Assembly (NCBI GenBank): GCA_028456385.1
Contig: JALNQF010000144.1
Coordinates: 50,180-114,179 of the forward strand
Length of the DNA: 64,000 nucleotides
Origin: Ophiosphaerella korrae
Taxonomy: Eukaryota > Ascomycota > Dothideomycetes > Pleosporales > Phaeosphaeriaceae
Reading direction: 5' to 3'
The position numbers and the translations under genes are program-made. This document shows positions 36,259 to 57,821 of this stretch, one piece after another (position 1 is the stretch's first letter; each line of letters starts with the position of its first letter). The notes below the pieces were generated by a model. The model saw only the letters and a program-made list of their open reading frames with translations. It ran no database searches and was not told the DNA's origin.

Positions 36259-36822
36259 CGTTGGCTAGATATGTAAAGTTTAGTCTGTGAAGAGGTTAGG
36301 GAACGAAAAAAAAATAAGATTCATAGGTTCATTCCCTCTTATCTTCCTCTTTCTCTTGATCGATGTTGCCTTGTATGACCATTGTGATTGCGTCAGATTG
36401 ATATCGTTGGTCGTTGGCCCTGCGTAACTCCGGTATACGCCGGTCCTGGTCGCACGTTTTAGGCCCTAGATCAACTGCTAAAACTACCTTTATAGGACTG
36501 AAACTCTCTAATTAATGCATCAATAAGCATTCCTAAGCGGCTGATAGAACGTTTCTTCGAGCGCTTATCTTACAAAGCTTAGTCAAAATACATTAGGGGG
36601 TTGCTACATAACGCATTTGAGCCATTTATCCACGAATGTATTATATTGCAGAAACAGTTTCGGTCTATCAAATCAAGTTAATCCCGCCACTCTATTTGTA
36701 AACCTTTGATAAAGGTTGTGTTATCAATTACTAGATCTACTTAAACTCCTTGTAGCCTCTTCCTCTATTACCCCGTGTATTGTGCTTCTAGCTATTTTTG
36801 AATCCCAAATTTTCTAACGACG
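36259..36822. promoter_or_regulatory. Bidirectional promoter of NRPS-like and PKS genes
   Basis: The 564 bp between the two divergent starts contain paired copies of the cluster motif: TAACTCCGGT at 36425-36434 and TACGCCGGTCCTGGT at 36436-36450. The second differs by one base from the copy at 54042-54056. Binding is inferred, not shown. Confidence 0.65.
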
Positions 36823-39800
36823 ATGACAAGAGATATTCTCCTCTTTGCAGGCCAAGGGGCAACCCTATCATTTGACAACGTTCAGACCCGATCAACATCA
36901 ACAACGGCTACTCGCTTCGTTGAGGCATGTCATAAGGCACTTGCTTCGGAATTCCGAGGCCTTGCGCCTACTGAGAGGCTTGCCGTGGAAAACATAATTC
37001 ATCTGTTTCCATCTCCAAGCAGTCTCATCAATCCAGCAGTACAGAATCACCCAGTGGTACAAGGGATTGTATTATACGTCCACCAGCTAATAGATTACAT
37101 TTCATATCGAGAAGGCTCAAGCGGCCTTCATTCCGAGCTATTGGAGTTAGCAGGATTTTGTTCGGGGATTTTACCAGCAGTCATCATATCACTTTGCCCC
37201 GAACCCAACTCTGAGGATTTTCTACAGGTTGCCATCGCTGGCTTTCGAATTGCATTCTGGATAGGCTTACGAGCTTTTACCTTCTGTCAGAGTATAGCGG
37301 GTGAAGATGAAAGGAATTTACCCTGGTCGTTGACCATCCAGGGACTGAGTGTATCCACCCTGGAATCAATTCTTACAAAATATAATCAATTAGTAAGTTG
37401 CCCTAGTTGATACTTGCTTGTTTCAGTATGAATTCTTGTCTGGAATAACTCATTGTGCTACAGGCAAAGCCGGAACTGCCGCTTAGGATAGCCGCGATAT
37501 TATCAAACCAGGTGATCTCTATTACTGGTGAGGGGCAGAGGCTGCAAGAGTTCACAATGGAACACATTCCGGCCAATGCCAAATACCGATTTGCGAACAT
37601 CCATGGTTACTACCATGGTGGTGCGCGTATGGAGAAGGTCGTTGAGGAGATTCTTGATGATGCACAGCGCTGTGGCATAGCGCTCCCTTCTTGGGAGTCG
37701 CTTCGATTTCCAGTTCGTTCGACTGTCGACGGCATGTATCTTAGCCCTAGACCATTTTCCATCTCTCTATTGGAAACTCTTCTCCAACTCATCCTTATCC
37801 ACCAAGTTGATTGGAACACAGTGGTAGAAAGATTGCTCCAAGATTCCCTTGAGAAGCTGGATCCAAATAGCGAGTTAAGCTGCACTATTCTCCCAATGGG
37901 CCCTAACTCGAAGTCGCTGTTGCGAGCGATGAACGGCAAGCCATGCCATTCCCGTCTTCGTGTAGCTAGCTTCGACCCTATCTCTGCAGACGGTCCATTA
38001 CCTGATGACATTGCCATAGTCGGCATGAGCGTCAACTACCCGTCCGGAGAGAACGCTACCAAGCTCTGGGAAACATTGGAGAAAGGGCTGAATGTTGTAC
38101 AAGATGTATGTTCTACCAGCATAGGAGTGGGATGGATGATGGACCGTAGAGCTAATCCAATATTAGATTCCCTCATCTCGGTTCCTTGTATCCAACTACT
38201 ACGACCCTAATGCAGATAGCGGCAAAATACCACAGAAGATGAGCTCAAGGTATGGGAACTTTTTAGATGACCCATTTGCGTTCGACAACAATTTCTTTCA
38301 GATTTCACCTCGCGAGGCTAAGTCTATGGACCCACAACAGCGTTTACTACTACATGCCGCATTTGAAGCAATGGAGGATGCTGGTTACGCACCCGACTCA
38401 ACAGCTTCTTTTCAGCGGCAGAGTTTCGGCGTCTACGTCGGCGTAGCCACTCTGGATTATGTTGATAACACGCGCAACGACATAGACGTGTATTATAGCC
38501 CGGGCACTCTTCGTGCATTCCTTAGTGGCAGAATCTCGTACGCATTCCAGCTGAAAGGGCCTTCTGTGGTCATTGATACAGCTTGCTCGTCTTCTACCGT
38601 CTCTCTCTACCAGGCATGTCGTGCTTTACAATCTGGGGATTGTACTTCCGCACTAGCGGGCGGTGTCAACGTCATCTCCAGTCCAGATGCAAGTAGATTC
38701 CACACTCCTTTTTCAGAAAATTCCCGCTCATTATTACAGATGTACCTTGGCCTTTCTCGAGCTCATTTTCTCAGCCCAACGGGACAGTGTAAGCCATGGG
38801 ATGCATCAGCAGATGGCTATTGCCGCGCCGAGGGATGCGGACTTTTCGTTCTCAAGAAGTTCTCCGACGCTGTGGCCGAAGGAGATCGTATCTATAGCGT
38901 CATCCGCGGAATAGAAGTCAATCAGTGCGGTACTGCGAAATCCATCACACACCCAGATGCAGATACGCAAGCGGCATTGTTCAACACCTTGCTTACCAAG
39001 ACCAAAATTGACCCAAATTCGATTGGCGTTGTTGAAGCACACGGCACTGGGACACAAGCAGGCGACTATGCTGAAGTCAACAGTCTGCAAGCTGCGTTTG
39101 GGACCGAACGGCCACCAGACTACCCATTAATACTATCTTCCATCAAAGGCAACATCGGCCATGCTGAAGCAGCTTCAGGCGCAGCTGGACTTGCGAAACT
39201 ACTCTTGATGATGGAGCACAAGCGCGTACCTCCACAGGCAGCATACCAGGTGCTGAATCCGCGCCTGGCATCAATGACAGAGCATAACATTATAGTTCCG
39301 ACAACGGTCATGGAGTGGAAATCGGCTGCTGGCAGACCTAGAAGAGCATTGTTAAACAATTTTGGGGCTGCCGGATCAAATGCAGCTCTCATCCTAGAGG
39401 AGTACACTCGACCTCACGCCAAAGTTTTCAAATCACCAGCACGATCCTGTCATGTGCTGAATATCTCTGCAAAGACGACTGATGCCCTAGAACGACTGCG
39501 GCAGGGCTACTGCTCGTACGTAGAACAGAGCAAGAGCGCTACGCAACTCGCCAATCTGTGTTACTCAGCAAATGCTCGTAGACGCGAGTTTGATGCCTTC
39601 CGCATTTCCGTCGCTGGTACATGTAGTGAAGACATTCTTCGGAAACTCCAGCAAGTAAAGACTCCCGCCAGATCAACGCGGTCTAAGGGATCGTTCATCG
39701 CATTCGTATTTTCCGGCCAGGGAAGCATTTACGCTGGCATGGGCGCGGAGCTTCTCTCGACCGCGCCCGTCTTCCGTGATAACGTTCGACTATGCAACGC

Positions 39801-42800
39801 CGTGCTCAAAGACTTGGGCTTTTCGACTGTCGACGCTCTCATCAGTGAGGACTTGGATGGTCTCAATACGCTCGATTCAAATGAACGTATTGTCGTTTCA
39901 CAATGCGCCTGTTTTGTCTTGGAGTACTGCCTCGCTCAGTGGTGGGTATCTTTGGGTGTAGTGCCTGATGTTGTTACGGGCCACAGCTTGGGTGAGTATG
40001 CGGCTCTGACGATTGCTGGTGTTCTATCTTTGCGCGATGCATTGCTCTTGGTAGCCAGACGGGCGGAGTTGATGGCCAAACTATGCCAACATGGCAACAC
40101 CGGTATGGCGGCCTGCAACATGGCACCGGCCAAGGCCGAGAGCTTGATATCAACCTTTGAAGGCCTCACTGTGGCATGCAAGAACGGTACGTTTGACTGT
40201 GTCATCGCTGGGCCGCTTACATCCTTGAATCACTTCGTCGATTCTTGCAAGTCTTCTGGGCACAAGGTTAAGATCTTGGATGTCCCCTTCGCATTCCACT
40301 CGGAAGCAATGGATCCTATACTAGAGCCTTTCGCACAAGTCGTGAGTACTGTCACGATCAATGCCCCTAAAATACCAATGGCATCGAGCTATCTTGGTAG
40401 GCTCACCGACGAAACCGACTTCTGCGTCGACAATTTCGTTGGGCACGCACGACAACCTGTCGAATTCATACGTGCAACCGAGGCTATTTCCACATTCGCC
40501 GGCGAGAAGGGGATAAATTTCATAGAAATCGGGCCTGCACCAATAAGTAAGTGATTCCTTCATCATCTCTTTTCCATGCAATCGATACTAAGACACCTCA
40601 GCCTTACCACTTATTAAAGCTACGTTGAAGCACGTCGAGGCGACTTACTTACCTTCACTGAAGGCCAATGAACAACCATGGGTCACCTTGTCTTCAACGT
40701 TGAGCTCACTATTCGTTCGCCAAATACCTGTACGCTGGCGTGAGGTTTACAAAGATCTTGATGTACAGTTCCTTACTGATCTCCCTCGTTATCCACTTGC
40801 GCCGGCTACGTTCGTGGTCCCGTTCGTGGAAGCCGCTTCGGTCCCACAGAGGCAAGAATTAGCAACTCCATCTCCGTCCTGGAAATTCCTAGATGGCTCA
40901 AGCCGTACATCTCCAAGAGGGGTGGTTTTCAATTCAAAAATCTCCGCTCTTGCGGAGTACATAAAGGCTCATAACGTGGGAGGCTCTTTCTTGTGTCCCG
41001 CTTCAGTCTACATCGAGCTCGCCTTCGAGGCACTAGATCTGCTCAAGCCCACACAAAACAAATACCAAACTCTGATCGATCTAACCTTCGACAAGCCTCT
41101 TGTATATACCGAGGAGAAGAGCGAAATGCATATTCAGACGCATATTGAGACAAATGGCTCCTCATTCCAAGTGCTATCTGGTGAAAACACGTTGCACTCC
41201 GCTGGCACTATGGCTACAGTAACAGACAAACACATCGACCAGGACTTCGCTCGACGCGCATCCTACATCAGGCGGCAAAGGGAATCGGTTAGCTTCACGG
41301 ACCGCTTCTCAGCTCGCATACTTTATGATGTCATCTTTCCACGTGTGGTCGCCTACTCAGGCCCGTACATCACCATCAAGCAGCTCAGCATTGCCTCCTC
41401 GGGCCTCGAGGGCATCGGTACATTTCAAATCCCTCCCGCCGCCCAGGGCGGCTTTGTATGCCCACCTGCATTCGCCGATACACTCCTTCATGCTGCCGGC
41501 TTTGTCGCGAACAGCAAGATCAACGTGGACGAGGCTTGCATCTGCGTAAAGGTCGAACGAGTCGCTATGCCAGTTTCTTCTCACTCTAAAAACCATTTAT
41601 TATATGGCCGGGAGATGGGCATCTACTGTGGCCTTGTGGAGTGCTTTGGTGATTTTGTTGTTGGTGATGCATACGCGTTCGACGAGGATGGCAATGTGTT
41701 GGCCTGCGTTGAGGGAATGCATTTCAAGCGACTCCGACTAAAATCCTTTCAAGCGCATCTGGCTCATTCAGCCGCATCTTCGTCAGGGCTAAAGCGTAAG
41801 ACAGTGGCTGCTTTGAAAGACGGTGCAGTGGAGCTTGAACGAGCACTCCGAGACTCTCAGCACCCTCATTCCTCATCCGTAATGCAGCAAAAAGTGCTCA
41901 TCAGAGGTTCAATCCAGGAAAGCATCAAACCGAAGCTCTACCGCAGCATATCAGAGGTCTGTGGTACAGTTGAATCCAATATCCAGGGAAGCACGCGCCT
42001 GTCCGACATGGGTATTGACTCGCTGCTGACCATTGAATTGACGACCGCGCTTCAGCATCAGTTTGCAGAGCTAAGCTTAGGTAGCTCTGATTTTGCACAC
42101 TGCGAGACGGTGGGCCAAATGGAGGATGTCCTCGAAAGTGCTTGTGCAGTGCAGGGAGAATGTACGCCTCCACCTTATCAAGTGCCTGGTCTCACCATGG
42201 GTCAGTCTACACCGATGAGCGAAGTCTCAATTGGCTCGACCGATATGGAACGGGCTGAAGGGTTCATTCAAAAAGTGTGCGGCTTCTCATTACAAGGTGT
42301 GGACAAAGATACTACTCTAGCTTCCCTAGGAGTGGACTCGCTTCTGTCGATCGAGCTAGTCGACGGATTAAAGCATACGTTCGGAGTTCAACTGGACGAT
42401 AGCAGCATTCCTGAGCTAAGCGTCCGCGCACTCGAAGAGGCCATGTTTCTGAATGAGCCAAAGACTCTCAAGCAACAGGAACCACCGGTCGGAGGCAATG
42501 ATGACGGTGCTCTCGTGCCTGAAGCTACGATCTTGCCCGAAATCAATACGATTTCAATGACTCTGCAGAAAAGCAACCATACGAACGAGAAAAAAGGGCC
42601 CCTCTATTTGTTCCATGATGGCAGCGGCCTTTGCAACCTGTATTCCCGCCTCAGTAAATTGGATCGGCAAGTCTACGGAGTTTCCAGCATCGACTTCTCC
42701 AGCATCGATAGCTCCATTTTGACATTGGAGGAGCTGGCTACTCGATATATCGACAAGCTTGGTCTTGCGAACAAAGAACGCTTGTTGCTCGGTGGTAAGC

Positions 42801-43461
42801 CTCCTCTACCCAAACTAGTCCACTTTATTTCCTTCCCTTTATTATCATTACTAGTCGGAAAACCTTTCTAACTCATCACAGGTTGGTCATTTGGAGGAGT
42901 CCTCGCATTCGAGGTATCGCGACAGCTCCGCTACCGGGGCAGCAGGGCGGTTCAGGGTGTTATCCTCATTGACTCGCCGCAGCCCGTCTCTCATGAGCCA
43001 CTCCCACAGGCTGTTGTCTCATACGTTTGCGAGCGCATTCCTGCGCACACGCAATCCATGCGCGGCGTGCGCCTTGCCATCAAAGCCCAGTTTCAGCGCA
43101 ATGCTCGTCTGCTAGGAGATTACAGCCCGCATTTAGTAAAAGGGCCCAGTGCTGGCGAGGATGTCCGATGTGTGATGCTAAAGTGCAAGGAGACATTTGA
43201 CACTGAGAATCTATGCAACGTCAAGTACCCGTGGCTTAGCGATAATAGGGCCCGTATCGACAGTGTGAAGGGGTGGGAAAGCATCGTGGGGAGACCGGTG
43301 CCTGTGCTGGATGCCGATGGAAATCATTTTGACCTGTTTGCTCCAAACAACGTACGCGCCATTCATTCTCGTGCAAGATGTATGCTAACGACAACGTGTA
43401 GGTCAAACAAGTCTCGAAGCAGTTGAAGAAGGCAATTTCCATGCTGGAGAACGACGGGTAG
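36823..43461 (+). CDS. Non-reducing polyketide synthase SAT-KS-AT-PT-ACP-ACP-TE
   Basis: Start ATG 36823, stop TAG 43459-43461. Introns: 37393-37463, 38106-38166, 38689-38739 (GC-AG, in frame), 40547-40601, 42795-42881 and 43352-43401; product about 2,087 residues. Domains: SAT with active Cys in GFCSG (residue 113); KS from about 375 with DTACSSS (Cys about 544), EAHGTGT and GNIGHAEAA; malonyl-AT with FSGQGS and GHSLGEYA; PT with His in HNVGGS and Asp in FADTLLHAAGF; two ACPs, with serines in GIDSLL and GVDSLL; TE with GWSFGG and His in GNHFDL. All catalytic residues are present, and there is no KR, DH, ER or methyltransferase. It should condense malonyl-CoA into an aromatic acid released by the TE. 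The TE start (LYLFHDGSG) looks most like those of orsellinate/resorcylate synthases, which is an impression, not an alignment. Confidence 0.95.
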
Positions 43462-44307
43462 TTAGTGTGCGCGAGATAAGGTGCTCGTTTATTTGGTGAA
43501 AATATTGAATTTGTTGTGCCACCTCTCTCTAACATGGGTGAAGCAAAACCAAGCGTCGCAGAAAGTTGTTGCAGAAAACGTCTGTATCCGTCTTAGTCTA
43601 GTTTAGCTTCAATGTTAAAGGCCGTTGGCCAAAAAAAGAGTTTCCAACGGGCCATTTGCATCCAAAGTGGGTCTGGCACGTGTCCGGGTATCAGCGTGAT
43701 GTGCCCAGGTAGCCAAGCCTCGACACGATGAACACCTTGGAGATAACAGTCTTATTGCCTCTTATTGCCGAGGCTATCTCCGGTATCTGCGGATTTTAGT
43801 TCGTCATATGGCGTTACTCCCGCCGCCCGCGCTGCAGCAGCCACTCGTTTGGCCTGTAGTCAGGCCAGAACAGGATCGCCGCCAGGGTTCTGCCCGGAGT
43901 TAACTGCTTTCGCCGGGACCGGAGTACGATCAGCCTCCTCCCATGTAAGGATCGGGCAGAGTGCCGAGGCTGCGGCAAGGATCGTTGCTTAAAAATTTCC
44001 CGCTTTGATTGTTTGTGCTGCGAAGACTGTCGCGTGGATAGCGAATGTGGGCGGGCGGTGGGAGCTAACGGCGTGGCGTGGTGGAGGGTTGCAGTGGCAC
44101 GAAAATTGGCATGCATGAAAAAACAGGTCACCGCCGTCCGGAATGGGCATAGCGCTCTATATCCGCTTTATTCCCACCGCGCTGGTAACAATGCCATTCT
44201 GTGCCTGGCTGTGTTTCTAAGCCTGTTGACTACGATATAAAACCTATTCTCTCAAGGCGAGCGAAAGAGCCTTAGCCACTCCTTTTTGCAACTCAACTTC
44301 GCCCACC
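43462..44307. promoter_or_regulatory. MFS promoter with paired cluster motif
   Basis: This gap between the PKS and the exporter holds two reverse-strand motif copies 13 bp apart: CCGGAGTTA at 43894-43902 (reads TAACTCCGG) and GGACCGGAGTAC at 43916-43927 (reads GTACTCCGGTCC). The same pairing occurs in the PKS promoter. A TATA-like ACGATATAAAACC lies at about 44231, 75 bp before the start codon. No gene is seen in the rest. Confidence 0.65.
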
Positions 44308-46338
44308 ATGGAATCAGATAAATCGTGCAGGCTTTCAAGCGAGCTGTCCCAAGCGGAAAAGGCAGCGGAAACTCCTCCCGTCGCGCCCGAGGAGGAGGAG
44401 ACTAGAAAAATCACAGGCGTCCGGGTGAGCAGCCGAGCTGGTCGTAAAATGTGCTGGCGCTAACACTGCATCCAGTGGTTTCTATTCGTTTTCAGCACCC
44501 TGACCAGCATTTTTGTCTACTCTCTAGACAACACAATTGTAGCAAATATCATTCCTGTGAGTAAACATGGCGCGCCGTGACCTGGGCCAGCACGACTGAC
44601 GCTTAAGAAAGACAATCGTCAACGAGCTGGACGCCATTCAAGACCTGCCATGGCTCTCTGTCGGGTGAGCACACAGATATCTTGTTCTATCAGGCGCATG
44701 CTCACAATTGGCCAGATTCATGATCGGTGGCATGGCAACTGTGCTGCCATTTGGGAAATTATATGCCATCTACGACTCCAAGTGGGTGTACATCGCCTCT
44801 ACGGTAGTATTTCTCGCCGCATCTGCCCTCTGTGGCGCCGCTCCCACCATGGAAGCAGAAATCATCGGACGAGTCTTCGCTGGTGCTGGTGGCAATGGCA
44901 TGTACTTTGGCCTTCTGGCACTTCTCTCCATCCACACGACCTCTCGAGAGCGACCACAATATCTTAGTTACACGTGAGCACTATGCGCCTATTCTATTTC
45001 TCTGCTCTCCCGCTAACACTGTGCGCATACAGTGGCCTTGTTTGGGGCTTAGGAACCGTTCTCGGGCCTGTCGTCGGCGGTGGCTTTGTCCTATGGAACT
45101 GGCGCTGGGGATTCTACATCAATCTACTGTTCGGCGCGATACTCTTACCTACATACCTCGTCGTTATTCCATCGGCCGATCCCCTCCCTGGCAAGACGCA
45201 AAGAGAGAAAGCAGCCCAATTTGATTGGTTTGGAGCCGTCATTAGCATCGGCGCAATGGTGACCCTCATCATGGCCATCAACTTGGGCGGTGCTCTATAC
45301 AAGTGGAATAGCGGCTCCGAGATTGCCCTTTTCGTGGTCTCGGGTGTATTATGGATCGCCTTCTCAGTGCAGCAGGCATTCTGCATTATGACGAATAAAG
45401 AGCAGCGAATATTCCCTGTTCATTTGCTGAAGCAAAAGATGCCCGTACTTCTGTTCCTCGCTTGCTCCTCCGTGGCAGCCGTGGCATATGTCTCGGTTTA
45501 CTACATCCCCATCTATTTTCAGTTCACCCGCGGCGACACGGCTATCTACACGGCAGTGCGACTGCTCCCATTTATATTCTTGCTCATCACCGCTATCCAA
45601 ACGAGCGGCATTATGATGACCCGGTATGGCTGGTTCAAGCCCTGGTATGTGATTGGAAGCCTTTCCTCACTAGTTACAGCAGCTTTGATGGGTAAGTCAT
45701 TCATTTCTTCTGCTTTTAACATGCGCTAATTATCAATTGAAAGCCCATTATGTCGAGTTGCGCACCGCTTCAGGTATTTTCTATGTTATCGAACTCTTCC
45801 TTGGCGCTGGTGCTGGCGCCTATACCCAGTCATCCTTCGCTGTTGTCCAGGCTTGCGTTCCAGAGGCCGATGCCGCCAGTGGACTTGCGCTAATGCTCAT
45901 TGGTAAGCTCTCCATTTCTACGTACTGCTACCATCTCCATCAATTTTAACATCAAAGTAGCTCAGCTTGGTGGCATGACCCTTGGTTTGTCTGTTAGCGG
46001 CGCTGTTTTCATTAACACTGCTGAGCGAGGCCTTGCCAAAGCGCTTCCAAATGTCCCTAAGGAACAGCTTGCCCAGATGGTTGCCGGTGCCAGTAACAAC
46101 GTCATTGCTGCTTTGTCGCCAGAGCTACGCACTGCCGCTTTCGAGGCCATCGTGAGCTCGTGGCAGAAAGTTTTCATTTGCGTCTACGTCGCGGCTGGCG
46201 TCAGCCTCGTGTCCTCTCTGCTGATGAAGGTAAGTCAACCCCTTATCGCAATCTTGCTAGCTTGTTGCATGATGCTAATCCGGGTCTACTCCACAGAATG
46301 GTCGCGCGAACATCAAAGTCTCGGCTGGAGGTGGCTGA
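44308..46338 (+). CDS. MFS transporter of the cluster (DHA2 type)
   Basis: Start ATG 44308 in CCACCATGG context, stop TGA 46336-46338. Small 5' exons: 44308-44424, 44476 to about 44556, then a 60-codon-scale exon ending in SVG, followed by larger ones; the last exon is 46297-46338. The N-terminus is acidic and cytosolic. Membrane blocks include FVFSTLTSIFVYSLDNTIVA (motif D1-like LDNTIV), GRVFAGAGGNGMYFG, GLGTVLGPVVGGGFV (motif C) and WRWGFYINLLFG, with about 14 helices in total. It is very likely the exporter or self-protection pump for the cluster metabolite; its promoter carries the shared motif. Confidence 0.9.
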
Positions 46339-47044: not shown

Positions 47045-47557
47045 TCAAAATAGTTCATGATATTTGGTGGTCTCGTCCGGGGTCCGGAACCATGGCGCCT
47101 TGCGTTTGCAATAGTATTCTCCGCTAGGCTTCCAGGTCTCTCCCGCCGGATCAATCTCCATAGCACCTACCGGCACGATGACAGCTCCCGGGAACTTCTC
47201 CTTGTTCTCTGCGACCATGGTGGAGCCACACTCCGCACAAAAGCTGCGCTCAATCATGCCGCCAGAGTCTGGGGAATGATCGTTGTAGGTGCGGAGCGTG
47301 TCTGCTCCTGTCAGGAGCTTAAAATTCTGGGTATCTCCTTAGTTTACAGTCTTATGCTTTTTTTTTTTTTAGACGGAGAGGTAACGAACCTCTTTCATGT
47401 ACCAGCTGTTGGCCATTCCAATTGATCCAGTATTCTTGCGACAGCTGTTACAGAAGCACAAACAATTGTTTACGGGTGGGCCGATGGCTTGGAAAGTAAT
47501 TTTGCCGCATAGGCATGATCCGTTAATAGTCGAAGGATTGGATGCTTGTTCAGCCAT
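47045..47557 (-). CDS. Gfa-like (glutathione-dependent formaldehyde-activating) zinc protein
   Basis: Start ATG 47557 (CAAAATGG context), stop TGA at 47045. Exons 47557-47390 and 47326-47045 around a 63-bp intron (47327-47389, donor GTTCGT) give 149 residues. The Gfa zinc ligands are all present: CLCG near residue 15, CFCNSC near 33-38 and CAEC near 90. The family includes the glutathione-formaldehyde adduct enzyme and many fungal proteins of unproved function. In secondary-metabolite clusters, Gfa-fold proteins may help lyase or aldehyde-related steps; a role with an aldehyde intermediate made by the A-T-R protein is my inference. It shares a 317-bp divergent promoter with the SnoaL-like gene. 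Confidence 0.88.
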
Positions 47558-47715: not shown

Positions 47716-47727
47716 GGACCGGAGTAC
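47716..47727 (-). promoter_or_regulatory. Cluster promoter motif (Gfa/SnoaL)
   Basis: GGACCGGAGTAC, the reverse complement of GTACTCCGGTCC, sits midway between the two divergent start codons. A weaker second copy, TACGCCGGGT, is at 47682-47691. A TATA-like ATATATATAG follows at about 47762 for the SnoaL-like gene. Confidence 0.65.
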
Positions 47728-47874: not shown

Positions 47875-48333
47875 ATGTCTACCTACCCCGACCGCAAGTA
47901 CATCTACGATGTCTTCCGCCTCTTTTTCGACCCACCGGAGGGCACCAAGAAGTTCTTCGACTACGTCGACGATGACGTGCACTGGCAAGTCACAGGCCAG
48001 CACCGCTTTTCAGGCTCGTGGACCACCAAGAAAGATTACTATGACGCCACATGGGCCAACATTAACTTGCTGTTGGCTGACCCGGGCTACAAGCTTGAGG
48101 TTCCAGGGGGCGAGGAGGGCGTTATCGTTGGTCAGGATGGCTGGTCTGTCATTGAGATGAAGACGATCAACACTTCGACCAAGAGCGGAGTTCCCTATAA
48201 TCAACACTACTCTTGGCACTGCCGCTGGAATAAGGAGGGCAAGATTGTGGAGGCGAAGGCCTTTTTGGACGCTGATCACCTCGAGAAGGTCTTGGGTGGC
48301 GAGCAGAAGAAGCTCGGCCTGGTGTCAGTCTAA
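47875..48333 (+). CDS. SnoaL/NTF2-fold protein
   Basis: A single-exon gene of 152 residues, ATG 47875 to stop 48331-48333. It shows the NTF2-like order of helices and strands: YIYDVFRLFFDPPEG, FFDYVDDDVHWQVTG, GSWTTKKDYYDATWANI, a central strand with IEMKTINTST, and the late strands NQHYSWHCRWNKEGKIVEAKAF ending in LDADHLEKVL. Conserved His and Asp residues that could act in acid-base catalysis are VHW and LDAD. Proteins of this fold catalyse cyclisation, isomerisation or dehydration of polyketide-like substrates; a ring-forming or tautomerising step is likely here but not proved. Confidence 0.88.
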   Translation: MSTYPDRKYIYDVFRLFFDPPEGTKKFFDYVDDDVHWQVTGQHRFSGSWTTKKDYYDATWANINLLLADPGYKLEVPGGEEGVIVGQDGWSVIEMKTINTSTKSGVPYNQHYSWHCRWNKEGKIVEAKAFLDADHLEKVLGGEQKKLGLVSV

Positions 48334-48725: not shown

Positions 48726-49943
48726 TTACTGCATCTGAGAAACTACCCATTTTACTCCTTCAGCTACCTTGGTATGAAATACTTCAGAACTCTTGAGCTG
48801 CGGCCAAAGCCAGAAGTAGTGTGGCAGGCCCGGATAGTTATCCATCTTGTTCGCTACGCTAAAGTGTATGTCAACATAGCGCTACTAAGCTGCAGCTCGG
48901 ATAGAATACATACTTATGCTTGTCAAGGACATGCTTTAAGATGGTAGAATCGTCGCGCACCGGATCAACATCACAAACGGCCTGATACACGGGAGGCAGG
49001 CGACCAAGACCGGGATGCAAGGCGGGGAAAGCATACGGATTGGTGCGCTGTTCGGTACCACCGTTGTTGTCGTAAAATTGGAGCATCGACTCACCATCTT
49101 GAAGAGGCGCTCCCTTCCATGTTTCTTCATATGCCTTGAATATGGGCTTATATTCGACGGGGACAAAGTGGGGGTGCAGCAGCGCGGGGCATAAGGCCAC
49201 CACTCCACGCACCATGTGAGCAAGATTCTCGTCGGCCAGCTTCAACGCCACACCTACCGCGACGCCACCACCAAGCGACGAGCCGAAGGAGAAAAAGCGG
49301 TTGGGATCTCCGTGCAGGCGCTGCGCATTGCGGTGACACTGCCTGATGGTCAATTATGGTTGCAGCACTCAGACGGCCAGGGAAGACTTGCCCACAGATA
49401 AGCGTCAAACACGTCGTTCAGCTGGGCGGGCACGGGATGCTCAGGCGCTAGGCGGAAATCTACCTGGGCCACTACAACGCGGGCGTGATGCGAGACAAAG
49501 CGGCACATGCGGTCCTCAAAGGACGATGCCCAAGCTCCACCATTGATATGACCTCCACCATGAGCAAAGACGCCAACGGGCAGGGGTTTTTCTGCATCGG
49601 TGGGCGTGTAGACGCGGATGGCGATTCCAGCGTCGGTGGTTTCCTTGTCTAACACAGTGAATCAGCGACGTCACGTGGGGCGGGGCGGAGAGAACAAGAA
49701 TGAGCGGGTGGGGCGGAATGGGGAACAGATGGTTGGCTCACGATCGCGGACGCGATAAGCGTCAGGTGGGGGGTACAAGGACTGCAATTGGTCTGACGTC
49801 TGGGCATAGGCAGCCCGCACCTCTGCCACAGTCCCGGAGATAAGCGGACGCTGGCCGAGCACGTCACGTTCTAGCTGTAGCCACTCTTCGGCAATATACA
49901 TGATGAATGCCAAGCTGCGCATCCTTCCTCCTGTGCCATCCAT
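48726..49943 (-). CDS. Alpha/beta hydrolase (hormone-sensitive lipase type)
   Basis: Four exons, 49943-49742, 49648-49392, 49338-48914 and 48858-48726, give 338 residues. The second intron (49339-49391) has a GC-AG border with donor GCAAGT. Without it the expected YLWCHRNAQRLHGDP cannot be read. The triad is visible: oxyanion motif AHGGGHINGG, nucleophile serine in FGSSLGGG, Asp in CDVDPVRDD and His in GLPHYFW near the end. The family is esterase/carboxylesterase-like. The start could instead be the Met at about residue 15. In the cluster it may hydrolyse an ester or lactone intermediate. It is head to head with the SDR, only 144 bp away. Confidence 0.9.
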
Positions 49944-49961
49944 ATATGTTGCGCCATCCGG

Positions 49962-49972
49962 GCCCGGAGTAC
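49962..49972 (-). promoter_or_regulatory. Cluster promoter motif (hydrolase/SDR)
   Basis: GCCCGGAGTAC, reverse complement GTACTCCGGGC: it keeps the GTACTCCGG core but ends GGC instead of TCC. It lies 19 bp from the hydrolase start and 116 bp from the SDR start. Confidence 0.6.
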
Positions 49973-50087: not shown

Positions 50088-51094
50088 ATGTCGGCTACTC
50101 CCCGCATAGCCGTTGTGACCGGCGCCGTAAGTAGCCCTGATTACTTGGCCGTCCGTTACTCTGACCACGGCCTCCATGCAGAATCGTGGCATTGGCCGCG
50201 CGATATGCGAACTTTTGGTAAAAGAGCACACGAAGCCACTGGTGGTATACGCAGCTTTCCGTGCTGGCACCCCACTCGAGCTTTCATCTCCCAATGTAGT
50301 CGTGCGACCAGCCCGCCTATCTCTCACTGATCTGGCATCCATCCGGGGGCTGGCCGGAGCCATCTACGCCGAGCACGGCGGATGCGACGTCGTCATCAAC
50401 AATGCAGGCGTTTACCATTATCGCAAAAACATTACTTCCCAGGAGCGCCGCGAAACCTTTGATGCAAATTACTACGGCACTGTGCACGTATGCCAGGCCT
50501 TTATTCCCATCATGCGCCCTGGCGGTCGTATAGTCAACCTCTCCTCCCAGTCTGGCCAGCTGCGCTACTTCGCTCCCGAGCTCCGCCAACGTTTCTTGGA
50601 ACCCAGTCTTACCCTGGATCAACTCGACGATCTAGTTGGCGAGTACAATGTACGTACCCTGCCTGCCTCATCCTTGTCTTCTCATGACTCACATGCAATC
50701 TCCAATCGCAGGATGCCGCTGATAAAGGTGAGGAAGTCGACCGCGGCTGGCCTCCCATGGCCTACTTCACTAGCAAGGCCGCTTTGAATGCCGCCACGCG
50801 CATCTTGGCCCATGATTATCCGCACATCGTTTTCAATTGCTGCTGTCCAGGTTGGGTGTCAACCGATCTCGGTGCCCAGGCTGGCTCGCCCCCCAAAACG
50901 CCTGGTAGGTCTCATCTCGACTTGAAATGTATCGGCACTGTTGCTAATGTCTTATTTTTTTTTCTTTTTCAACAGAGCAAGGCGCCCGTATCCCACTCCA
51001 TCTCGCTTTTGGGGATATCGGAAACGTCTCCGGTCGTTACTGGGCCAATGAATCTGTTTCTGATACAGGGATCGGGGAGGTACAGCCATGGTAG
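50088..51094 (+). CDS. Short-chain dehydrogenase/reductase
   Basis: Four exons, 50088-50126, 50182-50649, 50712-50904 and 50976-51094, give 272 residues. Spliced, the cofactor loop reads VVTGANRGIGRAI, followed by INNAGV, the catalytic serine region NLSSQSGQ and the YFTSK pair (YxxxK), then PGWVSTDLG. The order and length fit carbonyl-reductase-like classical SDRs, probably NADPH dependent. It would reduce a ketone, aldehyde or quinone intermediate of the pathway. The last exon ends in GIGEVQPW, a normal carbonyl-reductase-type tail. Confidence 0.92.
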
Positions 51095-51450
51095 GGGAAA
51101 TCAAGCGGTTGTTCAACTTGCATCTCATACTCTAAGTTTAAGTAGTAGTAGTAGTAGTCAATCACAAATACAAACATGCCCTCGTTGACTACGTTCTTCA
51201 ATTTAGCGGCCGACATGAGTTGCTACACCAATTTTGGTGCACCGAAATAGCCCTCTTCGATTGATTTTGGTGCCCTCAAGTTACTGCAACTGTGAAATAT
51301 CCTTCGGTAAAGTTCCTTAAGTTTGGTTCTCGGAGCCAAGTGTCATGCCAATGCGCGAGGTGAACAGATATTGGATCAAATAACGAGTGTTGTTCTCATG
51401 ATGAAGAGTCGCAAGTGTTACCTAATAATTTTGAGACCCTGTAGCTATAC
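51095..51450. other. 3' region between convergent genes
   Basis: A short (AGT) trinucleotide run occurs at about 51141-51160 inside the SDR 3' flank. Nothing else seen. Confidence 0.4.
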
Positions 51451-53958
51451 CTAGAGGTCTACTACTGGCAGTAAGAAACTATCAAAATACTGATATAGAG
51501 CATTGACATCATCTGGCAAAGCAGTCATCCCTACCCAAAGGTCAGGACGCACAACAGCAAGGCCACCATCGGAGTGGTTCGCTCCCCAAGTAGTGTGAGC
51601 ATCCTCATCTGGAGCGCGGTCATCGTAGATGATTGTGGCATGCTGCCTAAGGATGTGCAGTGCAGGTGTCGACATAACCGTGTCCATCTCCCATGGAAGG
51701 CGCTTCACCACAACCAGAATGTTGAACCGCTCGGAGCCACCGAAACGTCGGTAAAAGCCACCTGCAGGAAGCAGAGCCGACCCAAAAGTAGATAGCCGAT
51801 CACGAACCTTTGCCGACAACGAGGATGCAAAAATGACAATATGGAAGGTTGCAGCTCCAGTTAGTTTGTCGTACAGGTACCCCGTCTCCTCTGTCGAAAA
51901 ACAAACACGAGGATTCGGAGCGCGTACCCCATGGTTCACTTTGAATGGGGGCCGATGCTCTCCATTCTGAATGGATGTCTGCGTTGGCGTGAGGATTGAG
52001 GGCCCAAAGGGAGCGTCAACACCGAGTAAAAATTGTCCATTCTTGCCGAAAAAGTTTGCAAGAAACTTGAGATCCTTTTGCCTTTGGTTTTCATCAATGA
52101 CTCCGACATCTGTGCCATCATGCGTAGTGCTGTTGGAGGTGCCGTTGGGTGTGCCGTTAGGAACGCCGTTGGCTTTGATCAAAGTCTCAGTGTTGCTCTG
52201 AGCGGTGCTTGGGCCCTTTCCTAGGCCACGGACATTGGGAATCTGTATGTCGGTGGCACATACAAAACGAAGGTACTCTCCAGACGTTTCGATGATGCGA
52301 CATGCATGTTCGTGGCGCTCTGGACTGTATGTAGCCATAAGCGACTCAAGCTTTGCTTTCTTTTGAGCTACTAGCCCCATCTTCCAGGCGAGGTTGGAGG
52401 CATCCATGATTGATGCATTTAGCCCAAAGGCACCCATAACGCTATGAACATGACTAATGGGCCTGGGTTAGTTTGAGGAATACACAAGGCCTCAAGTGAA
52501 CACTTACGCAGCATCGCCGACGAGATGCACCCGAAGGTCTTCGGAAGAAAACGACCGGGCAACCCGTTCCGAAACTGCAGACCAGTTATTCAAGTTATTC
52601 CACCATTCCCAAGCGTTACTTACTCTTCCAGACCGCAAACCAGCTTAGAGGTGCAGCGAATTTCAATTTGTAGGGCGAGAAGATTTTATTCGCCTGCTCC
52701 AAGACCTCATCCGGCGTGATCGAATGCACATCAACCTTACCACCGGCTTCAGCAAATGCCGGATCCCTGGCTTGACGCGATACCGAAATCGCGCCAGTGT
52801 GAGAAATATCTAGCTGAGTATAAAGTCTTTGTACTGTCAGTGGAAGGCGCAAAACGGTTAGCAGGAAACGAACCTGATGTATCCATCTTCTCTGGGAATA
52901 ATGACACAACCGCCGTACTTCGAGCTAATTACAGACCTGGGATACACTTTAGCGAGATGCAACCGAGCCGGGTAAAGACACGTGCATACCCAAAAACCCA
53001 TGCGTGGGGGTAGTCACTTTCGAAAATGCAATCCATGATACCCCAGTAAATGTCGGTGCTCATGCCATCGAATGGAATATCGAGACGTTTGCGGATACTG
53101 CTGGCAGCCCCATCACTCCCAACGATAAACTTAGCACGGATGGTTTCATCGACACCAGTGCGGCTACTGGTCAGCGTGGCACAAATGGGGTGTTCCGCCC
53201 CACTGTCCAGGGTATAATCTTTAAGCGTCGTGCTACGTTCCACAAGAACTTTGTGCCGAAGGAGGTCTCGGATGAAAATCCTCTCGACCTGTCCTTGCGT
53301 AATGATGTGCAACCCACGATAGCGTGAGTCTGACTGGTGAGAGCGGTTAAATAACAATTTTTTACCATCTTTGTAGATGGCGGTTCGCTCAATAATCGGG
53401 CCTTCTTCATGGACTTCCTTGGCAAGACCCCAAGTGTTCAATATCTCAAGAAAACGAGGTTGAACTCCGTCAGCCCGTCCAGCAACCAGAGGCTGGTCAG
53501 CCTTATCTGTCGGTAAGTCGAATCAGTCGAAGGACCTGACGAACGAGGTGTGAATGTTCTACTCACCGATAATTCGGAATGAAACACCTTGTCTAACCAG
53601 ACTTAGAGCCGTTTCAAGGCCGCTAGGCCCAGCTGGGGTGATAACTGCAGTCAGCGAAACCTGCAAGGCCGTAGCGGTTAATCTTACCTCCACAAATCAA
53701 CACGTCTACCTCGCTAGAAGGGCTCCACCATTCTGGTATGCCATGCGGGTTATTTGTGCCATCGTAGAGTGTAGGCCAAGTACGCAACACATTGGTTCCA
53801 TGGTTGTTGGTTACATTTGATGTCATCAACTCTTTAGAGGGCGGAGTTATATAAGCGTCGTTTTGCGCTTCTGGCTCCGGCTCCCATTGCCATGGCGTAC
53901 CAGACGACGATTCTCTGAAGCCACGCTCCCAAGTATATGGAGAAACTGATTTTGCCAT
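51451..53958 (-). CDS. Phenol 2-monooxygenase-type FAD hydroxylase
   Basis: Start ATG 53958, stop at 51451; six introns with GT-AG borders restore a continuous protein of about 700 residues. Seen after splicing: FAD motif ICGAGPSGLETALSLVRQG, then DGVQPRFLEIL; VGSDGAASSIRKRL (the internal DG motif); IIPREDGYIRLYTQLD; and GDAAHVHSVMGAFGLNASI, the third FAD motif, with Ser where Pro is usual and without the usual GQG glycines. A thioredoxin-like C-terminal domain ends at VVRPDLWVGMTALPDD. This group ortho-hydroxylates phenols using NADPH and oxygen. The substrate is most likely the aromatic PKS product or its aldehyde. An insertion of low-complexity Asn/Thr/Gly repeats (NGVPNGTPNGTSN) sits in the C-terminal half. 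Shares a promoter with the O-methyltransferase. Confidence 0.92.
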
Positions 53959-54040
53959 GACTGTTTGAACTTGTGCAAGCAACCGTTCCTCGGGGCGTAG
54001 TCTCGTGGTATTTCTGCGAACAGTACTTGACAGCCCTGCA

Positions 54041-54055
54041 GTACTCCGGTCCTGG
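54041..54055 (+). promoter_or_regulatory. Cluster promoter motif (FMO/OMT)
   Basis: GTACTCCGGTCCTGG in the 246-bp divergent promoter. It is the fullest copy and matches the PKS-promoter copy over 14 of 15 bases from TAC on. Confidence 0.7.
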
Positions 54056-54204
54056 TTCCAACAACCACCACCGCAACCAGCGTTCTAAGCATCTCAAACA
54101 ACTACTCCGGGCTATTCGTGTTGGTTGTCAAGTTGAAGGTAAAATTAATTCTTAACTAGCCCAATTTCTTCAGTTTAATCTTGCTTCACATTAGTACCGC
54201 GGCC

Positions 54205-55980
54205 ATGGATACTCAATCGATGAATGAATTACGCCTGATTGGCAACCTTATCCAGTCTTCCATTGAAAGCATCATTAAACTGAATGGAATCTCCAGAGAT
54301 GACCTTCCTGCTAAACCGCTTTTTGATGCCCAAAGGGCGCTTCTCTCAGCTGCTGGCAAGTTGACTGAGCTTGTGAGCCAGCCCAGTACTCGAATCTTAG
54401 AAGTCTCTTCGCAGTATTTTGAAGCGCGCTGTTTGCACATCATCGCCGATAAACGCGTTCCTGATATTCTTGCGGAGGCTGGCAATAATGGAGTACATGT
54501 TGACAAAATTGCCAAAGCTATTGGTATAGAGGCACGAAAACTTTGTAAGTATTGCGTTTTCAACTTCTTCCTCCTAGATGATTTTGCTGATTAAGAATTT
54601 GCCCGCATATTGCGCTGCTTATGCTCCATTCATATCCTTGATGAAGTAGCGCCAGATACTTTTGCCAACAACAAGATTTCCACTGCACTTGTGCACAACG
54701 AACCCCTAAGAGCCTACATCTTACTTTTGTGAGTACCAAGACCATTCAAGCCTAGCAGATGCTAACAGAATCCTCCAACCTTCAGCGCCCTCGACATCTA
54801 CAGCGCCTCAGACTATCTGCCCCGAGCGCTCACTGACCCTATCATGGGCCAATCATACAAAGTTGACCAAACCCCTTTTCAGACTGCTGTCAATACCTCA
54901 AAGCCGCGATGGGAGTGGCTTGAGGAGATGGTTCCCGTCAAAGATATACGTGATGGTAACTGCGGATCTAACGGCGCTATCAGCGCATACCCCGGTCCAT
55001 TTGGGGCTGAGTTAGAAAAGGCAATTGCTGGGAAGGCTGATTCTAAGCTAGTATCGCGGCCAGAGCATGGCGTGTTCGGACTCGCTATGTTGGGTGGTGG
55101 AAGAGTGTTTGGGAAGGCCCATTTGCACGGTGAGCAACACCCTCATTTCGAGGCCTCTGAAGATTCTTGCAACCCACTCACCAATTCCCAGATTATCCAT
55201 GGGAAAAGCTCGGGACTGCCACTATTGTAGATGTCGGAGGTGGTGTTGGTAAGTACTTGCATTACACATAAACAGTTAGTGGCATGTACTTACGTCTGTT
55301 AATCAAGGCGGCTTTTGCCTCCAATTGTCGCATCTGTATCCACAGCTCAAATTCGTCATCCAAGATCGCGCACCTGTTCTTCAACAGGCCGAAGGCACAG
55401 TGTGGCCAAAGGAAAACCCATCCGCACTGAGCAAAGGACAGGTGGCCTTCACGCCACATGACTTCTTCAACATCAATCCTGTTAAAAATGCGGATGTGTA
55501 CTGGCTGCGCTATATCCTTCACGACTGGTCCGATGAGTACTGTGTCCAGATCCTATCCGCCATTCGGGCGAGCATGGGTCCCAGATCTCGTATCCTGATC
55601 TGGTAAGCGCGTTTTCCCCTTCCCGACCAAGCCACTTTGAGAAACAATCTTCACACGAGAAATTTCTGAATTTCTGAATTATATTTTGATAATTGCTAAC
55701 CGGTTCTACCCGCAGTGATCAGGTCATGAACACGACACTAGGTTGTCCAGAGCTACCACCTGCACCCAAGCCTTTACCCGCTAACTGGGGCTACTACACT
55801 CGCTACTCACACCAGCGTGACCTAACAATGATGTCAATTATCAATGGCATCGAGCGCACGCCCACTCAATTCCGAGAAATTGTGGAGCTTGCCGACTTGA
55901 AACTCCGAAAGATATGGGATTGTAGGAGCCAGGTATCCCTTGTCGAAGTGGTGTTACCCAGCTCTCCATTACTAGGTTAA
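54205..55980 (+). CDS. O-methyltransferase, possible defect at first splice
   Basis: Start ATG 54205, stop 55978-55980. The N-terminal dimerisation helices are intact. The SAM-binding loop IVDVGGGVGG is rebuilt by two introns (after LHLH and within VG), followed by FVIQDR, and the catalytic His is in LRYILHDWSDEY. So this is a class I SAM-dependent O-methyltransferase of the fungal sterigmatocystin/plant COMT type, about 420 residues. Oddity: the first intron (donor TTT|GTAAGT, 54545) has only one acceptor in the right phase, TTAAG at 54594-54595, and joining there makes the codon TAA. The other AG, at 54576-54577, reads TAA in the same frame. Either an unusual acceptor is used or the gene is broken; a sequence error is also possible. 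Confidence 0.8.
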
Positions 55981-56298
55981 ACGTGCCCATCGTTATAAAA
56001 TGTCATGGGTACTCAAAGTAGTGGAGTAGTAAATGATCAATTATTCCGTGATTGTAAACTCTAGGTCTATTGCTTCTTTAGGCTTGAGGGTGACGTGCAC
56101 CTTACACTTTGAATTGTGTTGAATAGGATACGTGAACGCTTTCCGAGAATGAAAACATGACTCTAAGCCTTCCAGACGAAATTTATCTTGTCTATACTCT
56201 TCAAAGTGAATACCAAAGAACAAGTTACAGGAGGAAAGTGTGATGCCCAGCAATGTGTGGCAAATTGTAGCCGAGATCGCGACTCCATAGCCACCAAA
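55981..56298. other. 3' region between convergent genes
   Basis: Nothing recognised between the O-methyltransferase and the Myb gene. Confidence 0.4.
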
Positions 56299-57678
56299 TC
56301 ACCGCATTTCCATCTTGAATCTTGTCTTAGTGGGCAAGAGCACACCTACTATGCCAGTAATAACATCTGGCGATGGGTCTTCAATCATCAAAACCATATT
56401 TGCCGATTGTTCTTGTGAGAAGTCTGAATCAAATTGCATAGCCTGTGGATCTGATTCAGAGTCCAAATGTGAGTCAGATTGCAATTCGGGCAGTTGGAAT
56501 TCCGAGAAATTCTGACTAATCGTTGATGTAAACAAATCATCATTGGTATTGGTCAGGGTGTTGATGGATGGGTTGGCTAGGCCTGGAACGAGATCGGTAC
56601 CGCCAATGGCGAATGGGCTTTCCATTCCTAAGGAATCTGTTGTACTCATATCTAAGTCTATCGCGTTAGACATAGTATGGGGGAAGTCACCGAGGGAAAA
56701 AGAGTCGCCGAACTGTTGTGGGTCGTAGTTGTTGCTCATTGTCATGGCGTCATCGTGAATAAGTGTTGAAAAGTCCTCCGAAGGCGGAACTTGCGTGGTA
56801 ATGTCTTGGCATGGCGAGAGAGGTGGCATACTCTCGCTTTCCATTCCGCTAGTGTCGTTTCCGCCGCTGCTATTTGCACAGTCCTGGGCTTCGCTGTTGG
56901 GATTCCTCGACGCTCGCTTGCGTGTCAGGACGACGTACCTTACAACTTGTCAGCTTTTATGTTCAAAACCATCAGGGAGGGCATATATACTTGTTCTTGA
57001 CGTTGTTGGTTGCACGATCTGGGAAATATTCGGTCTGAATTTGTTTCCATGCTCGGCCATGTTTCTCAACCGCCGTAAAAAGTGTCTCCTCCTATGCAAG
57101 TTAGTTGACAAGCAAATGGTGTCAAAGCTGCTAAATGGTTCACTACCTCTTGTTCAGTCCACTTGCTGCGGTCTAGGCTAGGATCAAGTGAATGGTGCCA
57201 CCTCTTAGCACACTCTGCAGGTATCAGTCAGACCAATGTGGTTGCATATGCTTGATGGAAAGATTCACTTACGATCTGCACTCCGTGTACCGACTTCTTC
57301 AGCAACCAAAGGCCACCTTTATTTCTGTGTGAGAACGGTAGTCAGACAGCTGAAAATTTGGCCTGTAGACGTACTGTATACCATACTCCTTCACACCTAT
57401 AGCTAACCTTCGATCTTCGCTCGGATCCCAAGGGCCTTTGTGGAGACCACCCACGAGGTGATTGCACCACCTTTTCCTACAGTCTTTGTTGGAACGACCT
57501 GGAATAGCACTGGAAATTGCGGTCCAATCCTTCGCCTTTCCTTGACTGGCTTATGAAAATTCAGCTGTTTGTGGTATTGTACACTGATCGGCGAGGGAAG
57601 CTACATACAAAGAAGAGCAACTTGCTGCAACAATATTTCGTCTTCCTCCCGTGTCCACTTTCTTACTACCTTTGACAT
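56299..57678 (-). CDS. Myb-type transcription factor, three SANT/Myb repeats
   Basis: Start ATG 57678, stop at 56299, six exons. Spliced, repeat 1 reads KWTREEDEILL to IPGRSNKDCRKRW; repeat 2 GPWDPSEDRRLAIGVKEYG to VGTRSADQCAKRWHHSLDP; repeat 3 KWTEQEE to HGRAWKQIQTEYFPDRATNNVKNKYVVL. Each ends in the recognition-helix pattern typical of R2R3/R1R2R3 Myb proteins. The C-terminal 180 residues are acidic and Ser/Asn/Asp-rich, fitting an activation domain. It is the only regulator in the cluster, where Zn2Cys6 factors are more usual. The Myb-like BasR of Aspergillus nidulans controls an orsellinate cluster, so a Myb controlling this one is plausible. Its own upstream region has a variant of the cluster motif at 57813. 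Confidence 0.88.
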
Positions 57679-57812
57679 GACTCAAAAAAATAAATTTAGG
57701 CCTCCGCCTTTATTACAAATGGATTGGCTGTTTCTCTATACTTTCTTTTCCGGACGAAAAATTCGGATAGAAGGGTATTTAAAATGCGGAAGACTTTCCC
57801 AAAAAGATAATT

Positions 57813-57821
57813 ACCGGCGTA
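57813..57821 (-). promoter_or_regulatory. Variant cluster motif upstream of the Myb gene
   Basis: ACCGGCGTA, reverse complement TACGCCGGT, 135 bp upstream of the start codon. It matches the second copy in the PKS promoter. A 9-mer can occur by chance about once in this window, and one such match exists at 5482, so this copy is the weakest. Confidence 0.4.

What the first reader, a model, noticed from the sequence alone, without database searches (positions are those of the whole stretch)
36425..57821. Cluster-wide promoter motif GTACTCCGGTCC
Every intergenic promoter of the 10-gene cluster carries the same element. Full copies: 43916-43927, 47716-47727 and 54041-54055. Core copies: 36425-36450 (two: TAACTCCGGT and TACGCCGGTCC), 43894-43902 (TAACTCCGG) and 49962-49972 (GTACTCCGGGC). 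A variant lies upstream of the Myb gene at 57813. The 9-mer GTACTCCGG occurs four times, all in promoters of the cluster; about 0.5 would be expected by chance in 64 kb on both strands, and I saw none elsewhere. This looks like the binding site of the pathway regulator and it defines the cluster edges.
Basis: seen in the sequence. Interest (0 to 1): 0.9.

Follow-up and report, generated by a model that had tools for sequence, protein, structure and literature searches.

The report
Shared promoter motif of fungal cluster
Six promoters that serve all ten genes of a fungal polyketide gene cluster carry the same short DNA word, which is rare in the rest of the genome and is most likely the docking site of the Myb-type regulator encoded in the cluster.

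Summary
The exact 12-mer GTACTCCGGTCC occurs 3 times in the 63.03-Mb assembly, all in this cluster. Ten aligned sites give WAC[T/G]CCGG[T/G], mostly followed by CC. TACKCCGGK occurs 532 times genome-wide; eight copies lie in the 3,059 bp of six cluster promoters, where 0.025 are expected (consensus chosen post hoc). None of four convergent intergenic regions has one. In leave-one-out scoring, five of six promoters beat every window of 172 kb of background; the Myb gene's own promoter does not (31 of 522 windows as good).

The genes form a non-reducing polyketide cluster whose only recognised transcription factor is a three-repeat Myb. Related Mybs and the cluster's type of FAD monooxygenase lie on contigs of equal length in 11 of the 19 species shown in both listings. 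Best reading: a pathway-specific Myb site, usually two per promoter, with weakly supported autoregulation. Binding by Myb is inferred. A Zn2Cys6 factor encoded elsewhere is the main rival. The kind of system is known (CicD, CASSIS); my searches showed no report of this motif.

The parts
36425..36436 (+). motif site TAACTCCGGTAT, promoter P1
36435..36446 (+). motif site ATACGCCGGTCC, promoter P1, 10 bp downstream of the first, same strand
43891..43902 (-). motif site TAACTCCGGGCA, promoter P2
43916..43927 (-). full 12-mer GTACTCCGGTCC, promoter P2
47716..47727 (-). full 12-mer GTACTCCGGTCC, promoter P3
49961..49972 (-). GTACTCCGGGCC, the only consensus site of the 165-bp divergent promoter P4
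54041..54052 (+). full 12-mer GTACTCCGGTCC, promoter P5
57811..57822 (-). weak variant CTACGCCGGTAA, 133 bp upstream of the Myb ATG
   Evidence: not significant on its own (31 of 522 background windows as good)
32932..36258 (-). NRPS-like A-T-R aryl-acid reductase gene (3' end of the model uncertain)
   Evidence: Pfam AMP-binding, PP-binding, NAD_binding_4; model
36823..43463 (+). non-reducing PKS gene: SAT-KS-AT-PT-ACP-ACP-TE
   Evidence: stop read by eye
44308..46338 (+). MFS transporter gene
47045..47557 (-). GFA-family gene (glutathione-dependent formaldehyde-activating enzyme domain)
47875..48333 (+). SnoaL/ketosteroid-isomerase-like gene
   Evidence: no Pfam or NCBIfam hit; homologs so named by their sources
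48756..49922 (-). alpha/beta hydrolase_3 gene (start could also be 49903; 3' end uncertain)
50088..51094 (+). short-chain dehydrogenase gene
51451..53958 (-). FAD monooxygenase gene (PF01494 + PF07976)
54205..55980 (+). O-methyltransferase gene (PF00891)
56299..57678 (-). three-repeat Myb transcription factor gene, open reading frame after hand splicing; candidate reader of the motif

Best explanation
The motif is the operator of a pathway-specific regulon. An asymmetric site of about 11 bp, TAC[T/G]CCGG[T/G]CC, sits once or twice in the six promoters serving all ten genes of a non-reducing polyketide cluster. It is read by the three-repeat Myb protein encoded at the cluster's right end, which most likely activates the cluster. 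The four divergent promoters let one set of sites serve two genes each. The weak site in the Myb gene's own promoter suggests autoregulation. Shown: the sites, their placement, their rarity elsewhere, and a Myb gene with an open frame whose relatives are linked to a cluster enzyme in other fungi. Inferred: that Myb binds the site, that it activates, and that it regulates itself.
For: Six of six promoters and none of four convergent intergenic regions carry the consensus. The 12-mer is confined to the cluster, 3 of 3 in the genome, and TACKCCGGKCC is 5 of 34. Eight of 532 TACKCCGGK sites fall in 3,059 bp of promoter (Poisson 4e-18, post hoc). The best 7-, 8- and 9-mers shared by the promoters are all pieces of the motif, beyond all 300 random sets at each length. 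In leave-one-out scoring 5 of 6 promoters beat all background windows. In 5 of 15 promoter pairs the longest shared word has 11-13 bases and holds motif letters; the sharing hardly extends beyond the site, so promoter duplication is unlikely. The Myb is the only transcription factor recognised in the window (Pfam on 39 of 66 ORFs and on spliced models). Myb and FAD monooxygenase relatives lie on contigs of equal length in Ophiobolus, Coniothyrium (tags 004490 and 004492), Macrophomina and Neofusicoccum parvum, and, counting all rows shown, in 11 of 19 species. Helix 3 of each repeat is nearly unchanged in eight close relatives. CicD, also a Myb, is required for cichorine production (passages of PMC8395729).
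Against: No binding or expression data. The motif lacks the animal c-Myb core AACNG (recalled) and the yeast Bas1 word TGACTC (named in passages of PMC6234034). CCGG also contains the CGG triplet typical of Zn2Cys6 sites (recalled). The bare core ACTCCGG is not enriched in the window. The Myb promoter site is no better than 31 of 522 background windows. A consensus copy lies in a predicted exon at 34287, and weaker words of 12-13 bits lie in a predicted intron of the reductase gene (35862) and in an exon of the methyltransferase gene (54987). Orthologous promoters could not be read here. In 8 of the 19 species in both listings Myb and monooxygenase are on contigs of different length, Lasiodiplodia among them. 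SnoaL is not on a contig of the Myb's length in Ophiobolus.
Confidence: 0.66

Rival explanations
1. The motif is the site of a Zn2Cys6 (Gal4-type) regulator encoded elsewhere in the genome; the Myb gene is a neighbour or an upstream partner.
For: The invariant core CCGG contains the CGG/CCG triplet that such factors read, and CTCCGG recalls the NirA-type site (both recalled). One Zn2Cys6-type gene lies on the same contig about 50 kb to the left of the cluster, and two consensus words lie within about 5 kb of it: C51:28645, outside the listed ORFs of 80 aa or more, and C51:31077.
Against: All ten cluster genes are assigned to other families. Whole-domain pattern search: none in six frames of the window, but this search also missed the distant gene, which an intron splits; the half-domain pattern gives five matches in the window, none of which looks like such a domain by eye, and finds the distant gene. 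That gene sits beside ORFs that look like glycoside hydrolases (by eye), and the word at C51:31077 (L005:897) lies inside an open frame there. The sites show no fixed spacing or orientation of CGG repeats.
Confidence: 0.22
2. The motif is the site of a general or global regulator that happens to be frequent here.
For: Some copies outside the cluster lie upstream of unrelated genes, such as one next to a subtilase gene (L008) and one upstream of an Hsp70-like ORF (5482).
Against: The word is rare: 532 TACKCCGGK in 63 Mb, against 1,215 for its reversed control. In 172 kb of background not chosen for the motif 2 sites score 12 bits or more, against 10 in 3 kb of cluster promoters (these ten trained the matrix).
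Confidence: 0.08
3. Chance or promoter duplication: no regulatory role.
For: The consensus was chosen after looking at the same promoters, so the small Poisson values overstate the case.
Against: Leave-one-out scoring, random promoter sets and genome-wide counts are all against it. Sharing between promoters hardly extends beyond the sites.
Confidence: 0.03

Closest known systems
CicD, Myb-like activator of the cichorine non-reducing PKS cluster of Aspergillus nidulans
   Same: Myb-type factor encoded in a non-reducing PKS cluster; deletion abolishes the product (passages of PMC8395729). CicD has Myb repeats at residues 7-58 and 69-105 of 341 (passages of PMC11199622), much like the first two repeats here.
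   Different: Counted there as two-repeat; here Pfam finds three repeats. I saw no published binding site for CicD in the passages read. Cluster content differs (recalled for the cichorine cluster).
BasR (AN7174), Bas1-like Myb regulator of the ors cluster of A. nidulans
   Same: Fungal Myb that controls a cluster with a non-reducing PKS (passages of PMC6234034 and PMC8395729).
   Different: BasR is described as a regulatory node for several clusters, and the paper speaks of the yeast Bas1/Gcn4 word, not of this motif (passages).
CASSIS principle (islands of shared promoter motifs delimit fungal clusters)
   Same: An island of sites over adjacent promoters, as seen here, is what CASSIS looks for (passages of PMC5570095).
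   Different: CASSIS is a method, not this motif; the original paper was not held.
Animal c-Myb R1R2R3 bound to DNA (PDB 1h88)

Membership tests
Pathway-specific promoter motif of a fungal biosynthetic cluster | Present in most or all promoters of the cluster | tested here: met
   6 of 6 promoters by consensus; 5 of 6 clear in leave-one-out scoring
Pathway-specific promoter motif of a fungal biosynthetic cluster | Rare outside the cluster | tested here: met
   12-mer 3 of 3 in the cluster, TACKCCGGKCC 5 of 34, TACKCCGGK 532 in 63 Mb
Pathway-specific promoter motif of a fungal biosynthetic cluster | Absent from intergenic DNA of the cluster that is not promoter | tested here: met
   0 of 4 convergent regions, 1,555 bp in all; best scores there 2.8-8.0 bits against 13.7-18.8 for the best site of each promoter
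Pathway-specific promoter motif of a fungal biosynthetic cluster | Conserved in the promoters of related clusters | not testable with these tools
   I know of no fungal DNA other than the window's own genome in the collections on hand
Pathway-specific promoter motif of a fungal biosynthetic cluster | Bound by the cluster's regulator and needed for expression | not testable with these tools
   Needs bench work
Myb pathway-specific regulators (CicD type) | Tandem Myb repeats | tested here: met
   Three stretches of PF00249 and of PF13921; nine helices in the repeat region of the model of a relative
Myb pathway-specific regulators (CicD type) | Gene linked to the biosynthetic genes across species | tested here: met
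   Equal contig lengths for Myb and FMO in 4 of 5 species with a close Myb and an FMO row, and in 11 of 19 species over all rows shown. Each listing shows 120 rows (of 187 and 269), so absences mean little; 3 of the 8 species with a close Myb have no FMO row
Myb pathway-specific regulators (CicD type) | Orthology to CicD or BasR themselves | tested here: inconclusive
   Aspergillus homologs of 341 aa, the length of CicD, align at 34-35% over 98%, but none was identified as CicD by accession
Myb pathway-specific regulators (CicD type) | Required for cluster expression | not testable with these tools
   Needs removal of the gene
Zn2Cys6 operator | Zn2Cys6 gene in the cluster | tested here: not met
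   All ten genes belong to other families; five half-patterns in the window, none convincing by eye; nearest such gene about 50 kb left of the cluster
Zn2Cys6 operator | CGG repeats at fixed spacing | tested here: inconclusive
   CCGG core invariant in 10 sites; pair spacing 10, 25, 35 and 61 bp with mixed orientation

The most novel reading that the evidence does not exclude
The site is a new Myb specificity: three repeats read a continuous, asymmetric 11-12 bp word, TAC[T/G]CCGG[T/G]CC, unlike the c-Myb and Bas1 words. It would be shared by a family of cluster-encoded three-repeat fungal Mybs, with nearly unchanged recognition helices and often linked to the same type of FAD monooxygenase, so that the word could predict the regulon of many silent clusters.
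Probability: 0.4. Interest if true: 0.6.

Novelty: new member of a known kind. Interest (0 to 1): 0.42.

Why it matters
It gives a concrete, testable DNA word for a class of fungal cluster regulators for which my searches showed no binding site (listings and the passages read), and it groups ten genes into one regulon without expression data. That would help in finding the cluster's limits and in deciding which genes belong to the pathway, including the patchily distributed SnoaL-like gene.

Tried and rejected
Promoter duplication as the source of the shared word was tested by longest shared words between promoters and rejected. A paralogous Myb region (C168, L022) was read; it holds no copy of the core words sought. 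A paired-site search (ACTCCGG twice, 4-34 bp apart) gave 11 hits against 25 for its reversed control: 1 is in the cluster, 5 are one identical 24-base word on several contigs and a sixth overlaps one of these as a variant, so it does not define a wider regulon. A near-copy of the P1 double site elsewhere (C2, 2 mismatches) is no more than chance: 3 hits in all against 9 for the reversed control. The five GTACTCCGGNCC sites outside the cluster were inspected: three overlap open frames of 100 aa or more and two do not; one of these two lies next to the 5' end of a subtilase gene. The plasmid search was uninformative. C2H2 patterns matched twice in the window (23123 +, 43217 -, the latter antisense to the PKS); they were not followed up. 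A first leave-one-out run used two sites one base out of register and a background that included five loci picked because they hold the motif; there 8 to 18 background windows matched the P1-P5 scores and 158 of 672 the Myb promoter. It was redone with the register corrected and those five loci dropped (windows overlap, so they are not independent). The k-mer test kept those five loci, which works against the motif. The script's own model of the Myb gene was wrong in the repeats and was replaced by hand splicing. Papers: passages only of PMC6234034, PMC8395729, PMC11199622, PMC8550591 and PMC5570095; all others only as search listings. The ACTCCGG word in PMC8550591 is inside a primer; the other seven papers and the 48 (15 listed) were not opened, so a report of the motif there is not excluded.

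Full report
What was checked. The window is contig C51:50180-114179 of an unnamed 63.03-Mb assembly in 974 contigs. It carries a ten-gene non-reducing polyketide cluster between about 32.9 and 57.7 kb. From left to right these are an NRPS-like A-T-R reductase (-), a PKS with SAT-KS-AT-PT-ACP-ACP-TE (+), an MFS transporter (+), a GFA-family protein (-), a SnoaL-like protein (+), an alpha/beta hydrolase (-), an SDR (+), an FAD monooxygenase (-), an O-methyltransferase (+) and a three-repeat Myb (-). Gene models come from a small script of mine and from hand splicing for the Myb; some ends are uncertain.

The 9-mer GTACTCCGG is found four times, against 0.17 expected from shuffles. The 12-mer is found three times, and these three are the only copies in the whole assembly (the reversed control has 4). 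GTACTCCGGNCC has 9 exact copies listed, 4 of them here. TACKCCGGKCC has 34, 5 of them here (reversed control 61). TACKCCGGK has 532 (reversed control 1,215), of which 8 lie in the cluster promoters. TAACTCCGG has 91, of which 2 lie in the cluster promoters (reversed control 339). The bare 7-mer ACTCCGG, by contrast, is not enriched in the window (8 against 5.4 expected); the longer word carries the signal.

Placement. I defined six promoter regions (3,059 bp in all) and four convergent, non-promoter intergenic regions of the same cluster (1,555 bp) as an internal control. With TAC[T/G]CCGG[T/G] or TAACTCCGG, all six promoters have one or two sites, ten in total, and none of the four controls has one. 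Sites lie 39 to 406 bp upstream of the modelled start codons. Four of six promoters hold two sites; orientation and spacing vary (10, 25, 35 and 61 bp between starts).

Statistics. The best 7-, 8- and 9-mers shared by the promoters are pieces of the motif; 0 of 300 random sets of matched segments reached the observed value at each of the three lengths. With a weight matrix trained on the other promoters, P1 to P5 score above every window of 172 kb of background not chosen for the motif, while the Myb promoter does not: 31 of 522 windows score as well. The expected number of TACKCCGGK in the six promoters is 0.025 and eight are seen. That figure is post hoc, because the consensus was taken from the same sites. 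An earlier leave-one-out run with a faulty register and a biased background gave weaker figures and is told under Tried and rejected.

Consensus. Ten aligned sites give 17 bits: position 2 T (8 of 10) or A, then A, C, T/G, C, C, G, G, T/G, then mostly C (7 and 5 of 10). A, C, C, C, G and G are invariant in all ten. In 5 of 15 promoter pairs the longest shared word has 11 to 13 bases and holds motif letters; a sixth pair shares an AT-rich 11-mer, and the rest share at most 10 bases. This speaks for independent placement rather than duplication of a promoter.

Who reads it. Pfam was run on 39 of the 66 ORFs of 120 aa or more in the window and on spliced models; the Myb is the only transcription factor recognised. 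A whole-domain Zn2Cys6 pattern found nothing in the window, but it also missed an intron-split gene about 50 kb to the left that the half-domain pattern finds; the half pattern has five unconvincing matches in the window. That distant gene sits beside ORFs that look like glycoside hydrolases (by eye). Two consensus words lie within about 5 kb of it, one inside an open frame and one outside the listed ones, which I cannot dismiss but which does not tie that gene to this cluster.

Linkage. The Myb has close relatives in eight species (nine rows, 47-64% identity). In Lasiodiplodia they differ. Counting every named species with a row in both listings, more distant Mybs included, 11 of 19 have equal contig lengths (counted by hand from the two listings). 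The further seven are Triangularia verruculosa, Xylariaceae sp. FL1019, Penicillium vulpinum, P. riverlandense (tags 002851 and 002853), Aspergillus lucknowensis, Camillea tinctor and Cytospora mali; some of these contigs are megabases long, where equal length proves less. The eight without are Lasiodiplodia theobromae, A. spectabilis, Xylariaceae sp. FL0255, A. carlsbadensis, Delitschia confertaspora, A. multicolor, Hypoxylon crocopeplum and A. mulundensis. Each listing shows 120 rows (of 187 and 269). That equal length means the same contig is an inference. Westerdykella has the monooxygenase (69%) but no Myb row shown. The pairing of such a Myb with this type of monooxygenase thus looks old and recurrent. 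SnoaL is different: its Ophiobolus relative is on a contig of another length.

Comparison with what is known. A Myb protein, CicD, is required for cichorine production from a non-reducing PKS cluster in A. nidulans (passages, PMC8395729), and BasR acts on the ors cluster (passages, PMC6234034). Shared promoter motifs that delimit fungal clusters are the basis of CASSIS (passages, PMC5570095). So the kind of system is known. I saw no report of this motif in two word searches of the library (8 papers, one opened, a primer; 48 papers, 15 listed, none opened) and no binding word for the cluster Mybs in the passages read; most subscription papers are not in that library.

Verdict. The regulatory reading is very likely, the Myb as its reader is likely (0.66), autoregulation is weakly supported, and the edge claim is only half testable. 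It is a good new member of a known kind.

Noticed in passing
56299-57678 (-), protein residues 332-365: The Myb has a conserved C-terminal element of about 35 residues, shared with its close relatives and recognisably with several Aspergillus homologs and one of Monilinia, predicted with high confidence in the model of a relative. No Pfam domain was reported there. It may be an interaction domain.
   Followed up: partly
56299-57678 and 51451-53958: Fungal three-repeat Mybs and PF01494+PF07976 FAD monooxygenases recur on contigs of equal length in 11 of 19 species named in both listings, well beyond the close relatives. The pairing may mark a wider family of clusters.
   Followed up: partly
47875-48333 (+): The SnoaL-like gene is 86% identical to a protein of Aspergillus sclerotioniger and 85% to one of Penicillium expansum, while the Ophiobolus copy (67% over 74%) is on a contig of another length than its Myb and FMO. 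It looks patchily distributed and perhaps recruited, yet its promoter carries the full 12-mer.
   Followed up: partly
61075-61483: A 409-bp element with 30-bp perfect terminal inverted repeats and 126-bp inner arms at 86%, MITE-like. By eye its ends resemble the 24-base word that recurs on several contigs.
   Followed up: partly
58001-60000 and 62001-64000: AT-rich right flank (36.6% and 36.0% GC) up to the contig end; possibly decayed repeat DNA.
   Followed up: no
5482 (-): A lone TACGCCGGT about 270 bp upstream of an ORF that looks like an Hsp70-type protein; probably chance.
   Followed up: partly
L005:2900-4164; C51:28645 and C51:31077: A Zn2Cys6-type regulator gene on the same contig, about 50 kb left of the cluster, between ORFs that look like glycoside hydrolases, with two consensus words within about 5 kb.
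   Followed up: partly
26996-31065: Two genes with the fungal rhodopsin (PF20684) domain flank a BTB gene left of the cluster.
   Followed up: no
3498-4880 (-): A 459-aa open frame without any Pfam match.
   Followed up: no
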